Below are positions 52,155 to 57,401 of a stretch of 64,000 nt of DNA, one piece after another (within the stretch, counting starts at the first letter, position 1; every line of letters begins with the position of its first letter). The notes under the pieces were generated by a model, which saw only the letters and a list, made by a program, of their open reading frames with translations, did not search any database and was not told the DNA's origin. Where the stretch lies: positions 2,527,426-2,591,425 of the forward strand of contig NZ_RBIL01000001.1 of assembly GCF_003633755.1 (NCBI RefSeq). Direction: 5' to 3'. The DNA is from Solirubrobacter pauli. GTDB taxonomy: Bacteria > Actinomycetota > Thermoleophilia > Solirubrobacterales > Solirubrobacteraceae. The position numbers were made by a program, and so were the translations under genes.

Positions 52155-53417
52155 TCAGCGATCCCGTCGCATCGACCGCATCTGCCGGCCCAGCGAGGCG
52201 AGGTCCGCATCGGCGATCCGGTAGCGCCGCCGCACGTCGAACAGCTGCTGCGCCTCGTCGGCGAGCTCGCGGACCGGACGGCGGATCTCGATGCCCTCGT
52301 CGGGGGCGTCGACGGCCAAGACCGGCGGCGCGAAGCCGTGCTCGGCCAGCCAGCGCGGCAGGTAGGCCCCCGCGACCTTGCCCTGCGGCCACCACAGCGG
52401 CGCGCCCTCGCCGTCCCCGTCGCCGCGCAGGCGACGCGTCCGGCGGGTGCCCAGCAGCAGCCGGCCCTCGAGCACCGGCTCGCCGGGGTCCGGCGGGTCC
52501 TCCACGCCCGCGAGGCGCGCGATCCCGGCGATCGCCACGCGCGCCTGATGCGTCGCGAGCGCGCCGAACTTCAGCGGCGAGTCGATCCCGTCGCCGGCCG
52601 CCCACGTGCGCGAGGCGCCCTGGACACGGCCGTCCTCGCCGGTCAGCACGAAGCCCTCGTCGTCCGCGGCGAGGCCCTCGATGGCAGGACCGACCAGGCG
52701 CGGGACCGCAACCACGCGCTGCACGTCGAGCCGATCACCGCTCGGGTCGAGCGACAGGCCGCCGCCCGCGGCGCGGGTGGCGACCGCGCCGGTCACGAGC
52801 CGCACGCCCGCACGCTCGAGCTCCTCGGCGGCCGCGGCGCTCGCGTCCGGACCGAACACCGACAGCGCGCTGCGCTCCGGCGTGACGACCGTGATCTGCA
52901 CGTCGTCATGGCCCAGCTCTCGCGCTTCCCCCGCGGTCATGATCGCCAGCTCGTAAGCGGGCAGCGGCCACACCGCGCCGGGCGGGACGACGATCGCGAG
53001 CCGCTTCGAGTAGCCCTCCTCGATGTCGCGCAGGAGGCCGCCGAACGGCTCCGCGTCACCGCCGGGCCACCAGGTCGTGGCGCCCTCCACGCCCTGCACG
53101 GCCCGGGCGCCGGCGGCGACCAGCAGCGCGTCGAAGGACCGGGTGCCGCCGCTCGCCAGGCGCACCTGGCCGGCGGCGTCGTCGACGCCGACCACGGCGT
53201 CGATCACCACCTCGGCGCCCGCGTCCGCCGCGATGTCGCTCAGCGGGACGCGGCGCGCCTGGCCGACCGCGAACGGCTCGGCCACGGCCATCGGCCGGTA
53301 CGTGAAGTCGGGGTCAGGAGCGACGACGGTCAGCTGCACGCGCTCGCCGGCCACCTCCCGGAGGCCCAGCAGCGCCTCGAGTCCGGCGACCCCGCCGCCG
53401 GCGATCAGGACGTCCAT
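52155..53417 (-). CDS. FAD-dependent NAD(P)-disulfide-type oxidoreductase, sulfide:quinone reductase-like
   Basis: A 420-residue two-Rossmann flavoprotein. The FAD loop is DVLIAGGGVAGLEALLGL (residues 2-19), followed by SFDALLVAAGARA (about 95) and the FAD-binding WAAGDGIDSPLKFGALATHQAR (about 290-311). The pattern FTYRPMAVAEPFAVGQARRVPL matches sulfide:quinone reductase and NDH-2 proteins. No redox cysteine pair of true SQR is seen, so NADH dehydrogenase-like or unassigned function is possible. The ATG at 53417 is preferred over 53429. It is a single gene facing the divergent sigma operon. Confidence 0.8.
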   Translation of the reverse strand: MDVLIAGGGVAGLEALLGLREVAGERVQLTVVAPDPDFTYRPMAVAEPFAVGQARRVPLSDIAADAGAEVVIDAVVGVDDAAGQVRLASGGTRSFDALLVAAGARAVQGVEGATTWWPGGDAEPFGGLLRDIEEGYSKRLAIVVPPGAVWPLPAYELAIMTAGEARELGHDDVQITVVTPERSALSVFGPDASAAAAEELERAGVRLVTGAVATRAAGGGLSLDPSGDRLDVQRVVAVPRLVGPAIEGLAADDEGFVLTGEDGRVQGASRTWAAGDGIDSPLKFGALATHQARVAIAGIARLAGVEDPPDPGEPVLEGRLLLGTRRTRRLRGDGDGEGAPLWWPQGKVAGAYLPRWLAEHGFAPPVLAVDAPDEGIEIRRPVRELADEAQQLFDVRRRYRIADADLASLGRQMRSMRRDR

Positions 53418-53445
53418 GTCCCGCACCATACGGCCTCCCGGCCGG

Positions 53446-54699
53446 TCAGGCGGTCTGCGGCGACCGCCCGCGCTCGCGGACCCACAGCCCGACGCGCCCG
53501 CGGAACAGCTCCAGGAACTCCTCGTGCTCGTGCGCCGGGTAGGTGTCACGCACCGTGCCCGCCAGCAGGGCGTCGAAGTCCGCCGACGACACCCACTCGA
53601 GCAGCAGCTCGTCGACGTGCTTGAGCGACGTCGCGCAGAACGCCTTGTACTCCTCGACCTGGAAGTACTCGTCCGCCAGCCGGCGGTACTCGGCGAGCTT
53701 GGCCCGGTAGTCGAGGTCCTCGCGGTCGCCGACCTCGAAGTAGCGGCGCGTGTCCATGTCCACCACGCGCGAGTCGCGGCCGGTGACCGTGCAGAAGATC
53801 GTCCACTTCAGCAACGCGGAGATCGCCCACGGGAAGTAGTAGTGCAGCGACGTCAGCGCCACGTCCGGCGACGCGTTCGCGTAGTCGATCGGGTGCGCCT
53901 CGGCACCGCGCACGAGCGTCTCGCAGGAGTTGAACTCCCAGCGGAAGAACGCGTTGATCAGCCGCGAGATCGTGATGATCTCCTCGCCCGTCTCGGGCGC
54001 GAGGAAGTCGTGCGAGATCGCGTAGCGGTTGTGCATCGGCTGGTCGGGCTGGAAGTCCATGACCATCGTCTCGGCGCCGATGCTCAGCGACCGCGCGAAC
54101 TTGTCGAAGCCCTCGATCGACTCCTGCAGGTGCATCAGCCGCTCGCCGGACTCGTTGTACGCCTGCATCAGCTGGTCGTGGTCCTTGATCCGCGTCACGC
54201 CGACCCACTGACCGCCGTCGTAGGGCTTCATGAACAGCGGGTAGCCGATGTTGGCCGCGATCGCGCCGAGGTCGAACGGCCGGTTGTACTTGGCCGCCGT
54301 GTACTCGAAGCGCGTGTTCTCGGGCGGGTTCTTGTGCGGGACGAGCACGGTCTGCGGCACCTTGATCCCGAGCCGGATCATCGCCGCGTAGGCCGCGTGC
54401 TTCTCCATCGCCTGGAACGTGAACGGCGAGTTCAGCAGGTACACGTCGTCCATCAGCGCGACCTTCTTCAGCCACTCACGCGGGACGAAGTACCACCAGG
54501 CGAGCCGGTCGACCACGAGGTCGTAGCGGGGCTTGTCGCGCAGGTCGAAGGGCTCGATCGTGATCCGTTCGGAGCTGACGTGGTGCGTGGACCCGCCGTA
54601 CTTGACCGGGCCGACCCGCCCGAGCAACGTCTCGAAGGCCCGCGGCCAGTCCTCCTCCGTGCCGAGCAGGAGACCGATCAGGTGGGAAGCGTCGGACAT
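53446..54699 (-). CDS. ATP-grasp domain protein of unknown function
   Basis: A 417-residue protein with an ATP-grasp core: the ATP-binding region LFMKPYDGGQWVGVTRI (about 155-171), a central helix-strand region with AETMVMDFQPDQPMHNRY (about 210-228), and the metal-ligand segment DANASP to TGRDSRVVDMDTRRYF (about 275-315). ATP-grasp enzymes join a carboxylate to an amine or thiol through an acyl-phosphate. The partner substrate is unknown. Its ATG overlaps the stop of the preceding esterase gene by one base, so it is the third gene of an esterase-esterase-ATP-grasp operon. Such a set suggests synthesis and release of an amide or ester product. Confidence 0.75.
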   Translation of the reverse strand: MSDASHLIGLLLGTEEDWPRAFETLLGRVGPVKYGGSTHHVSSERITIEPFDLRDKPRYDLVVDRLAWWYFVPREWLKKVALMDDVYLLNSPFTFQAMEKHAAYAAMIRLGIKVPQTVLVPHKNPPENTRFEYTAAKYNRPFDLGAIAANIGYPLFMKPYDGGQWVGVTRIKDHDQLMQAYNESGERLMHLQESIEGFDKFARSLSIGAETMVMDFQPDQPMHNRYAISHDFLAPETGEEIITISRLINAFFRWEFNSCETLVRGAEAHPIDYANASPDVALTSLHYYFPWAISALLKWTIFCTVTGRDSRVVDMDTRRYFEVGDREDLDYRAKLAEYRRLADEYFQVEEYKAFCATSLKHVDELLLEWVSSADFDALLAGTVRDTYPAHEHEEFLELFRGRVGLWVRERGRSPQTA

Positions 54700-55436
54700 C
54701 AGCAGAACCTCGGGAGATGGTGGGCGAGCTGCGCGCGCCACGAGTGCCAGTCGTGGGGGACGTCGTACCCCCACAGGTCGAGCTCGTGGCGGATTCCCTT
54801 CTCGGCCAGCAGCCCGGCGAGCTGCCGGGTGGACGCGAGCGCCCCCGTCGTGTCCTCCCACTGCCCCTGGCCACACACCAGCAGGAGGCTCAGCCGCGAC
54901 CGCAGCCACTCGAGGTGGTCGCCGCCGAAGTGCCCGACGTAGTCCATCGGGTTGTTGAAGTACGTCTGCTCGCCGCGGTCGCCCCAGGCGTTCCACGTCG
55001 AGGGGTCGTAGTTGCCCGACAGGCACAGCGCGAGCGGGAACAGATCCGCCCGCTTGAGCGCGAAGTTCAGCGCGTGGTAGGCGCCGAGGCTCGCGCCGGT
55101 GGTGATGATCTCACCGCCGGTGTCGTGGGAGATGAACGGCACGACCTGGTCGAGGATCCACGACTCGTAGCGGCCGTGCTCACGCGCCCGGTCCTCGAGC
55201 GAGAGCTGCCGGTTCGACCACGAGGACGCGTCGAACGAGTCCACGCAGTAGAGCTTCACGCGGCCCGCGTCGATCAGGTCGGCGACGGCGCCGACCATGC
55301 CGTTGTCGCGCCAGTCGTAGGCCTTGCCCGCCTCGGACGGGAACGCGAGCACCGCCCGGCCGTAGTGCCCGAAGACCGCGACCGTCCCGGCCGCGCCGAT
55401 GGCGGACGAGTACAGCTCATGGTGGGCGTGGTTCAT
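54699..55436 (-). CDS. Serine hydrolase/esterase (second of pair)
   Basis: A 245-residue alpha/beta-hydrolase-fold esterase of the enterochelin/FrmB-like group. The nucleophile elbow is TGASLGAYHALNF (about 116-128), with the late His in DVPHDWHSWR (about 230) and VFGHYGRAVLAFPSEAG near the N-terminus. No signal peptide, so it is cytoplasmic. The start ATG 55436 overlaps the upstream esterase stop by four bases, and its own stop joins the ATP-grasp gene by one base. Its substrate is presumably linked to those of the neighbours. The open frame running far upstream (to 57377) is a shadow of the genes there. Confidence 0.82.
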   Translation of the reverse strand: MNHAHHELYSSAIGAAGTVAVFGHYGRAVLAFPSEAGKAYDWRDNGMVGAVADLIDAGRVKLYCVDSFDASSWSNRQLSLEDRAREHGRYESWILDQVVPFISHDTGGEIITTGASLGAYHALNFALKRADLFPLALCLSGNYDPSTWNAWGDRGEQTYFNNPMDYVGHFGGDHLEWLRSRLSLLLVCGQGQWEDTTGALASTRQLAGLLAEKGIRHELDLWGYDVPHDWHSWRAQLAHHLPRFC

Positions 55437-56458
55437 CGCGTCCAGGCGCGTTTGAGCAGCTGGGTCAGATGCGGGTCGAAAGCATCCCGCCAACCGACGT
55501 AGTTGTGCATGTCGAGCACCTCCTCCAAGCTCACCTCGTACCCCTGAGCCGCCAGAGCACGCGCCATCTCCCGGTTGTTCTCCGCGTTCTCCTCGGCCCT
55601 GCCGACGGTGAGGGTCACCGGAACGGGCATCGCGTACTCGCCGTCGCGCAGCGTGTCGCGCACGAAGCGCGTGATCCGCGTGTAGCGGGAGAAGCCGCTC
55701 TCGTGGCGGTCGTAGCGCGGGATGAAGTACGAGCCCGACTGCAGGAAGGCGCCGCTCAGCAGCCGCGGGTAACGCCGCTGGGCGTGCAGCATCGCCAGCG
55801 CGCCGAGGCTCGCGCCCATCCCGACCGGCTGGCCGATCACGCCGAACCCGGCGCGCAGCTGCGGCAGCACGTCCGAGTCGAGCACGCGGCTGTACGCGGC
55901 GCTGGCCGAGTACCAGTTGTTCCGGTCCCCGGGCTGCAGGAGCGCGACCCGGAACGGCGGCACGTCGCCGCGCGCGATCACCGCGCCGGCGTAGCGCGTG
56001 AGCTGGGCGAGCGCGTCGTACTCGGGGCCGTCGTTGGCGAGCAGGAGCCGCGCGGGCGTGCCCGGCGGGAAGCTCTCCGGCGACCACACTCGCACGGCGA
56101 CGGTGCCGCCCAGCCCGCGTCCGCGGATCTCGGCCTCGTCGTAGCGGCCGGGGACGGCCTGCGCGTGGAGCCACTCCGGCGCCGCGTAGCCGTCGAGCTC
56201 GAGCACGGACTTGTCCCCGAACGCGCCGGGCGCCGTCTTGTCGTTGCCCGGGTCGAGGATGTGCTCGGTGCCGCCGTCCGGATGGTCGACCTCGAGCTTG
56301 TACTCGAGCCGCAGCACGTCGGGCAGCTCGACCTCGAGCACCCAGCCGGTGCCGTTGCGGGCGAACGAGCGCTGCTCGTGCGAGAGGTGGAGGTCGCTGG
56401 CGAGGCGGACGGCCGTGTAGCGGCTGTCCGGGTCGTCGAGTCGCAGCACGACGGGCAT
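55433..56458 (-). CDS. Enterochelin-esterase-like hydrolase (first of pair)
   Basis: A 341-residue two-domain protein. Residues about 1-110 form an E-set/CBM48-like beta sandwich as in Fes-type esterases, followed by an esterase domain with nucleophile elbow GMGASLGALAML (about 218), LLQPGDRNNWY (about 172) and late His in DMHNYVGWRD (about 318). Fes-like enzymes hydrolyse ester bonds of siderophores such as enterobactin, but members also act on other esters. No siderophore genes or transporters are nearby. ATG at 56458 is the first gene of the operon with the second esterase and ATP-grasp. It diverges from a Crp-like regulator. Confidence 0.83.
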   Translation of the reverse strand: MPVVLRLDDPDSRYTAVRLASDLHLSHEQRSFARNGTGWVLEVELPDVLRLEYKLEVDHPDGGTEHILDPGNDKTAPGAFGDKSVLELDGYAAPEWLHAQAVPGRYDEAEIRGRGLGGTVAVRVWSPESFPPGTPARLLLANDGPEYDALAQLTRYAGAVIARGDVPPFRVALLQPGDRNNWYSASAAYSRVLDSDVLPQLRAGFGVIGQPVGMGASLGALAMLHAQRRYPRLLSGAFLQSGSYFIPRYDRHESGFSRYTRITRFVRDTLRDGEYAMPVPVTLTVGRAEENAENNREMARALAAQGYEVSLEEVLDMHNYVGWRDAFDPHLTQLLKRAWTR

Positions 56459-56672
56459 CGCGGGCGAACCCTAGCGCTGGGGTGCCGACCCGTCCCCCGT
56501 CCGGGGGTGGCGCCCGTCGGCAACTCGCCGCTCCGGGCCGAACTTGAGGGTGAGCACCTCCGACACCGCTCCTCACCCAACCACGCGACGTGCACGACCT
56601 CCGTCCTGCTGCCGGGCTCCCCCTTGGTCCGGCCGCAGTGTGCGCGTCGCGTGGTCGGGTAACAACACCCGC
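56459..56672. promoter_or_regulatory. Divergent control region with nested inverted repeats
   Basis: This 214-base gap between the esterase operon and the crp-like gene holds an outer inverted repeat TGCCGAC/GTCGGCA (56483-56489 and 56516-56522) and an inner CCCCCG/CGGGGG dyad (56494-56499 and 56502-56507). They lie 25-64 bases upstream of the esterase start, a fitting place for an operator bound by the Crp-like protein. Confidence 0.5.
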
Positions 56673-57401
56673 GTGAGCGGATCGACCATCTCCATCGTCG
56701 ACGCCGACCCGGACCTGGCCGAGCAGCTCGACGACGGCCAGCTCGAGCGGGCGCGCCACGAGGCGCTGACCCGCGTCCAGCGGCTCAGCCCCGGCGAGTG
56801 GGACGTCGCCAACGCGCTCGAGCCCGACGTCCACCACCGCGGCTTCCTGATCGTCGAGGGCCTGCTGTCGCGTGAGGTTGACGTGCTCGGACGGCACTGC
56901 ATCGAGCTGATCGGACCGTGCGACGTGATGCGGCCGTGGAGCTGGGACGACGCCGGCTCGCACGTGCGTGCGGAGGTCGGCTGGGAGGTGCTCGAGCCGA
57001 CGAAGCTGGCCGTGCTCGACCACGCGCTCGTCACGCGCATCAACCCGTGGCCGCAGCTCGGCGTGGAGCTCTTCAACCGCGGGACGCGGCGCGCGCATCA
57101 CCTGGCGGTCGCGCTCGCGATCGCCCATCACAACCGCGTCGAGGACCGGCTGCTGCTGACGCTCTGGCACCTCGCCGAGCGCTGGGGCAAGGTCACGCCT
57201 GACGGCATCCTGCTGCCGCTGCCGCTCTCCCACGAGCGGCTGGCGAGCATCGTCGGCGCCCACCGCCCGTCGGTGACGACGGCGATGGGCGCGCTGGCCA
57301 AGGCCGGGAAGGTCAGCCGCCGCGACGACGGCGGCTGGCTCCTGCACGGCGATCCGCCCGAGAAGCTCCGCCACCACAAGCTGGCGGCGGCGTTGACCTA
57401 G
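56673..57401 (+). CDS. Crp/Fnr-family transcriptional regulator
   Basis: A 242-residue Crp-type protein. An N-terminal beta-roll domain (about 45-120, LEPDVHHRGFLIVEGLLSREV, then VLGRHCIELIGPCDVMRPW) resembles a cyclic-nucleotide-binding fold without the RxS phosphate-binding motif, so it may not bind cAMP. The C-terminal helix-turn-helix (about 185-220, LPLSHERLASIVGAHRPSVTTAMGALAKAGKV) is a standard Crp recognition helix. Start GTG 56673. It diverges from the esterase-esterase-ATP-grasp operon and is the natural candidate to control it. It converges with the secreted protein by four bases. Confidence 0.85.
   Translation: MSGSTISIVDADPDLAEQLDDGQLERARHEALTRVQRLSPGEWDVANALEPDVHHRGFLIVEGLLSREVDVLGRHCIELIGPCDVMRPWSWDDAGSHVRAEVGWEVLEPTKLAVLDHALVTRINPWPQLGVELFNRGTRRAHHLAVALAIAHHNRVEDRLLLTLWHLAERWGKVTPDGILLPLPLSHERLASIVGAHRPSVTTAMGALAKAGKVSRRDDGGWLLHGDPPEKLRHHKLAAALT

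What the first reader, a model, noticed from the sequence alone, without database searches (positions are those of the whole stretch)
53446..56672. Esterase-esterase-ATP-grasp operon facing a Crp-like regulator
Two serine-hydrolase-fold proteins with intact GASLG elbows, one with a Fes-like N-terminal sandwich, are translationally coupled to an ATP-grasp enzyme. No siderophore, peptide synthetase or transporter genes are near. An ATP-grasp ligase plus two hydrolases points to making and breaking an amide or ester of an unknown small molecule. The divergent Crp-like protein lacks the RxS cAMP motif, and the shared gap has nested inverted repeats, so a dedicated local signal is possible.
Basis: partly seen in the sequence, partly recalled or inferred. 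Interest (0 to 1): 0.65.

Follow-up and report, generated by a model that had tools for sequence, protein, structure and literature searches.

The report
Conserved esterase–ATP-grasp ligase operon
Two intact hydrolases and a RimK-like ligase form an operon shared by many actinobacteria and often sited beside further amide-forming ligases, so it very probably makes and breaks an amide or ester of a small molecule that nobody has identified.

Summary
The operon is real. EST1 (55433-56458), EST2 (54699-55436) and an ATP-grasp protein (ATPG, 53446-54699) lie on the minus strand with 4-nt and 1-nt overlaps, divergent from a Crp-like gene. The window is Solirubrobacter. Both refutation tests were run and failed. 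The families do co-occur: in 296 phylum genomes ATPG is in 24, EST2 in 22 and both in 20. The presumed ATP and metal ligands (K100, K158, E260, D272, N275) are invariant in 45 homologues. ATPG passes no Pfam or NCBIfam cut-off; its model is RimK-like (Z 21.5) plus a C-terminal helical domain. EST2 has a CE1-esterase fold. Both hydrolases keep Ser/Glu/His triads.

The survey adds more. A GCS2-type carboxylate-amine ligase adjoins ATPG in 16 of the 80 nearest loci, and this genome has a copy 0.97 Mb away. Some lineages add three further ATP-grasp ligases, an S51-like peptidase and paralogous esterases; in the 296 genomes that ligase trio occurs only where ATPG does. The best reading is a cytosolic amide-ligation/hydrolysis module for an unknown peptide-like metabolite. 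The Crp-like gene is confined to a Solirubrobacter subclade, so a dedicated local regulator is not a general feature. Product and substrates remain unknown.

The parts
55433..56458 (-). EST1: alpha/beta-hydrolase (PF00756), first gene of the operon; proposed triad S217, E289, H318
54699..55436 (-). EST2: CE1-fold alpha/beta-hydrolase, 4-nt overlap with EST1; proposed triad S116, E194, H228
53446..54699 (-). ATPG: RimK-like ATP-grasp ligase with an extra C-terminal helical domain (about residues 318-411), 1-nt overlap with EST2
56673..57401 (+). Divergent Crp-like regulator (HTH_Crp_2; no cNMP domain detected); a lineage-specific neighbour, probably not an essential part
56575..56595 (.). Distal arm of the 21-nt inverted repeat in the Crp leader
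56640..56660 (.). Proximal arm of the inverted repeat, ending 12 nt before the Crp start codon

Best explanation
ATPG is a cytosolic carboxylate-amine ligase that works like RimK, LysX and ArgX: it activates a carboxylate as an acyl phosphate with ATP and Mg and joins it to an amine, probably an amino acid or an amino-acid-derived small molecule. EST1 and EST2 are serine hydrolases (or acyltransferases) of CE1 type that cleave or transfer an ester or amide of the same compound. In this genome a GCS2-type carboxylate-amine ligase encoded 0.97 Mb away probably supplies or extends the substrate, as its homologues seem to do from the neighbouring position in other actinobacteria. The product is a short peptide-like metabolite of unknown identity. 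Shown: operon, conservation, intact candidate catalytic residues, folds by model, co-occurrence and clustering with other ligases. Inferred: direction of chemistry, shared substrate, GCS2 acting in the same pathway, nature of the product.
For: ATPG and EST2 co-occur in 20 of 296 genomes (24 and 22 in all; Fisher p 4e-25, relatedness not corrected). Gene order is EST1-EST2-ATPG in most actinobacterial loci and EST1-ATPG-EST2 in another order. The ATPG model matches RimK best (5zct, Z 21.5, rmsd 2.7 over 264 residues), then ArgX/LysX. K100, K158, E260, D272 and N275 are invariant in 45 sequences. EST2 matches CE1 feruloyl esterases and S-formylglutathione hydrolases (Z 23-24); triads are 100% conserved. 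A GCS2 ligase adjoins ATPG in 16 of 80 loci on either strand and in several tree clades; a YbdK-type GCS2 adjoins it in Chloroflexota/Dormibacterota and beside distant ATPG homologues together with a circularly permuted ATP-grasp. A trio of ATP-grasp ligases plus an S51-like protein occurs only in ATPG genomes (5 of 5). Own GCS2 copy: 65% identity to the adjacent R. rhodnii gene.
Against: No substrate or product is shown. Some loci hold ATPG with EST1 only (Actinoplanes group) or alone, so the pair of esterases is not indispensable. GCS2 is absent from one family (f8) that keeps the full EST1-EST2-ATPG operon, so it is not obligatory. ATP-grasp folds also occur in kinases (ITPK1 and PPIP5K2 score Z 18-19), so the fold alone does not prove ligase chemistry. 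Metal-ligand spacing D272-x-x-N275 differs from the E-x-N I recall for RimK.
Confidence: 0.62

Rival explanations
1. The module belongs to alpha-glucan metabolism: it adds an amino acid or peptide to glycogen, trehalose or a sugar intermediate, and the CE1 hydrolases remove it.
For: In G177 and G563 the genes are coupled to glgA, with glgC alongside and, in G177, glgB and a GH57 gene. In one micrococcal family ATPG lies convergent to pgm-glgB-maltokinase-treS-glgE. CE1 folds with CBM48 domains are among EST2's structural matches.
Against: Two small clades only; sister lineages keep the operon without glycogen genes, and none adjoins it in the window.
Confidence: 0.12
2. ATPG is a small-molecule kinase with an ATP-grasp fold and the hydrolases act on an unrelated ester.
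For: ITPK1 and PPIP5K2 kinases are within about 3 Z units of the best match.
Against: The best matches are amino-acid ligases (RimK, LysX, ArgX), and genomic partners are carboxylate-amine ligases.
Confidence: 0.1
3. ATPG is a graspetide-type or RimK-type ligase that modifies a ribosomally made peptide or protein, and the hydrolases are maturases or trimming enzymes.
For: RimK, the best structural match, adds glutamates to a protein; alpha/beta-hydrolases occur beside some graspetide ligases (PMC8939145).
Against: The gene overlaps leave no room for a precursor gene inside the operon, and no recurring short gene family was seen among ORFs of 90 aa or more; shorter ORFs were not surveyed.
Confidence: 0.1

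Closest known systems
RimK / LysX / ArgX carboxylate-amine ligases (ATP-grasp)
   Same: Best structural matches over residues 6-308 (Z 19.7-21.5); invariant lysines and acidic/Asn residues at the positions expected for ATP and metal binding
   Different: 14-17% identity; far below the NCBIfam RimK cut-off (19.6 against 143.4 bits); extra C-terminal helical domain; operon with hydrolases
Enterochelin esterase Fes and CE1 feruloyl/S-formylglutathione esterases (PF00756)
   Same: Same fold and family, GxSxG elbow and conserved triad
   Different: EST1 far below the Fes equivalog cut-off (41.5 against 222 bits); no obvious signal sequence by inspection; no siderophore genes nearby
Amidoligase gene neighbourhoods surveyed by Iyer, Aravind and colleagues in 2009 (from memory; doi 10.1039/b917682a not held)
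   Same: Clusters of ATP-grasp and GCS2 ligases with hydrolases or peptidases, predicted to make peptide-like metabolites
   Different: Whether this EST1-EST2-ATPG family or the trio cluster is described there could not be checked
C7orf58-type ATP-grasp fused to a PC-esterase (PMC2824669)
   Same: Also pairs an amino-acid ligase of ATP-grasp fold with an esterase
   Different: Metazoan, secreted, different esterase fold and TTL-like ligase

Membership tests
ATP-grasp superfamily | ATP-grasp fold | tested here: met
   AlphaFold2 model pLDDT 89.7, Z up to 21.5 to RimK
ATP-grasp superfamily | Conserved ATP-binding lysines and metal-binding acidic/Asn residues | tested here: met
   K100, K158, E260, D272, N275 invariant in 45 sequences; residue roles assigned by analogy, not by superposed coordinates
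ATP-grasp families in Pfam (Dala_Dala_lig_C, ATP-grasp_4) | Score above the curated cut-off | tested here: not met
   18.1 against 24 and 12.5 against 27 bits
RimK family TIGR00768 | Score above the curated cut-off | tested here: not met
   19.6 against 143.4 bits
PF00756 / CE1 esterases (EST1, EST2) | Score above cut-off and intact catalytic triad | tested here: met
   38.0 and 40.4 against 22 bits; S217/E289/H318 and S116/E194/H228 100% conserved; EST2 fold
Enterochelin esterase Fes | Score above the PRK10439 equivalog cut-off | tested here: not met
   41.5 against 222 bits for EST1
Crp/Fnr regulators | Crp-type helix-turn-helix | tested here: met
   PF13545 37.6 against 27 bits
cAMP-binding Crp proteins | Recognisable cNMP-binding domain | tested here: not met
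   No PF00027 hit at E up to 1; ligand binding itself not testable here
Graspetide biosynthesis | Precursor peptide encoded with the ligase | tested here: inconclusive
   No precursor between the overlapping genes; short ORFs in flanks not surveyed systematically
Known amidoligase neighbourhoods (Iyer et al. 2009) | Same gene family and arrangement as published | not testable with these tools
   Paper not held; other searches found no description

The most novel reading that the evidence does not exclude
A widespread, undescribed actinobacterial pathway builds a non-ribosomal oligo-amide metabolite with up to five ligases (ATPG, GCS2 and the ATP-grasp trio) and recycles it with CE1 hydrolases and an S51-like peptidase; Solirubrobacter keeps a minimal version, and some lineages couple it to glycogen synthesis.
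Probability: 0.35. Interest if true: 0.7.

Novelty: new variant of a known kind. Interest (0 to 1): 0.48.

Why it matters
A conserved ligase-hydrolase module with several further amide ligases nearby implies a common metabolite that may be missing from current pathway maps, and the eight-gene version gives a concrete cluster to express.

Tried and rejected
Siderophore esterase role: EST1 is far below the Fes equivalog cut-off, and the survey brought up no siderophore genes. Defence role: no PADLOC hit for ATPG, EST1, EST2, GCS2 or one of the extra ATP-grasps. Plasmid spread: no plasmid match. Dedicated Crp regulation as a general feature: rejected by the survey. The glycogen link was tested in the orders of G177 and G085 and found only in small clades, so it was demoted to a rival. 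The ATP-grasp trio was sought in the own genome and not found (one weak hit of E 2e-5). The downstream FAD-dependent oxidoreductase (from about 53429 to 52155) is co-directional but not a conserved neighbour: 5 kb away in L149, no match in the other congeneric loci fetched. Literature searches found no description of the operon.

Full report
What is there. On the minus strand EST1 (55433-56458), EST2 (54699-55436) and ATPG (53446-54699) overlap by 4 and 1 nt. ATPG is single-copy in this 7.1-Mb genome. The nearest named relative is Solirubrobacter taibaiensis (90% identity), and all seven genomes of the genus searched have ATPG, whereas only the own genus has it among 151 genomes of the order. 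In the ATPG tree the genus, with one Solirubrobacterales MAG, sits among sequences of other actinobacterial families. Horizontal gain is likely but not tested formally.

Enzymes. EST1 and EST2 pass the PF00756 cut-off. Columns S217, E289 and H318 of EST1 (50 sequences) and S116, E194 and H228 of EST2 (46 sequences) are 100% conserved, which fits catalytic triads. The EST2 model (pLDDT 95.3) matches CE1 feruloyl esterases, S-formylglutathione hydrolases and antigen 85 (Z 20-24). ATPG reaches no curated cut-off in Pfam or NCBIfam. Its model (pLDDT 89.7) matches RimK first (Z 21.5, 2.7 A over 264 residues), then ArgX/LysX, with inositol-phosphate kinases about 3 Z units lower. Residues 318-411 form extra helices. 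In 45 homologues K100, K158, E260, D272 and N275 are invariant. Their roles as ATP and metal ligands are assigned by analogy.

Co-occurrence. In 296 genomes of the phylum ATPG is found in 24, EST2 in 22 and both in 20. Fisher's test gives p 4e-25; it ignores relatedness. Among the 80 loci nearest to the query, 37 keep EST1, EST2 and ATPG together, 20 keep EST1 and ATPG (mostly the Actinoplanes group), and 9 show ATPG alone, some cut by contig ends. These 80 are the closest relatives only, so the sample is biased towards the window's own type. In the order of G177 a ligase at 43% identity lies in the order EST1-ATPG-EST2 in nearly all loci fetched. Linkage kept through a change of order is good evidence of a shared function.

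Further ligases. A GCS2-family protein (PF04107) lies beside the operon in 16 of the 80 loci, on either strand and in several separate clades of the tree. In the phylum sample 12 of 24 ATPG genomes have it against 35 of 272 others (p 4e-5, same caveat). The own genome has it at C1:3557403-3558869, about 0.97 Mb from the operon. It is missing from family f8, which keeps the operon, so it is not obligatory. A second, YbdK-type GCS2 follows ATPG in Chloroflexota and Dormibacterota loci. In G042 and G256 a distant homologue of ATPG (27-29%) lies with EST2, a circularly permuted ATP-grasp protein and a YbdK-type GCS2. An extended cluster with three more ATP-grasp proteins, an S51-like protein and paralogous esterases is found in Pseudonocardia, Geodermatophilus, Dormibacterota and others. 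The trio occurs in 5 of 296 genomes, all of which have ATPG.

Glycogen. In G177 and G563 the operon runs into glgA, with glgC alongside, and in one micrococcal family ATPG is convergent with the pgm-glgB-maltokinase-treS-glgE genes. Names of pgm, treS, glgE and maltokinase rest on my reading of the sequences; glgA, glgB, glgC and GH57 of G177 were confirmed with Pfam. Sister lineages lack these neighbours, so the link is a lead.

Regulator. The Crp-like gene (92-95% identity) lies beside the operon in four congeneric loci (L027 and L151 look like one species) and not in L152 or L153. The inverted repeat is significant in the window (0 of 1000 shuffles), in L149 (0) and in L150 (1), weaker in L027 (16 of 1000). 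Its arms keep pairing through two A-T to G-C exchanges while the spacer shrinks from 44 nt to about 8. It ends 12 nt before the Crp start, so it more likely concerns the Crp gene itself (operator or leader hairpin) than the operon.

Verdict. Its product is unknown. Novelty is rated as a new variant of a known kind, because amidoligase clusters are a known kind and the main survey of them could not be read here.

Noticed in passing
window 52155-53429 (minus): FAD-dependent oxidoreductase (sulfide:quinone reductase/NDH-2-like by eye) starts 16-28 nt after the ATPG stop on the same strand; not a conserved neighbour.
   Followed up: partly
L066:121-1670: Radical-SAM (Rv2578c-like by eye) protein beside the operon appears to carry an intein-like insertion ('CLGADTPI...VVSHNC').
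   Followed up: no
L022/L025 (G200:C146), L007 (G183:C204): ATPG split by a frameshift in G200 and carrying one in-frame TAG in G183; assembly error or decay not decided.
   Followed up: no
L156:1-13748: ATP-grasp trio, S51-like gene, esterases and ATPG interleaved with glgC, glgA, glgB and a GH57/DUF3536 gene.
   Followed up: partly
L154:9785-13247 and L155:6501-10594: Distant ATPG homologue next to a circularly permuted ATP-grasp (CP_ATPgrasp_2, below cut-off) and a YbdK-type GCS2.
   Followed up: partly
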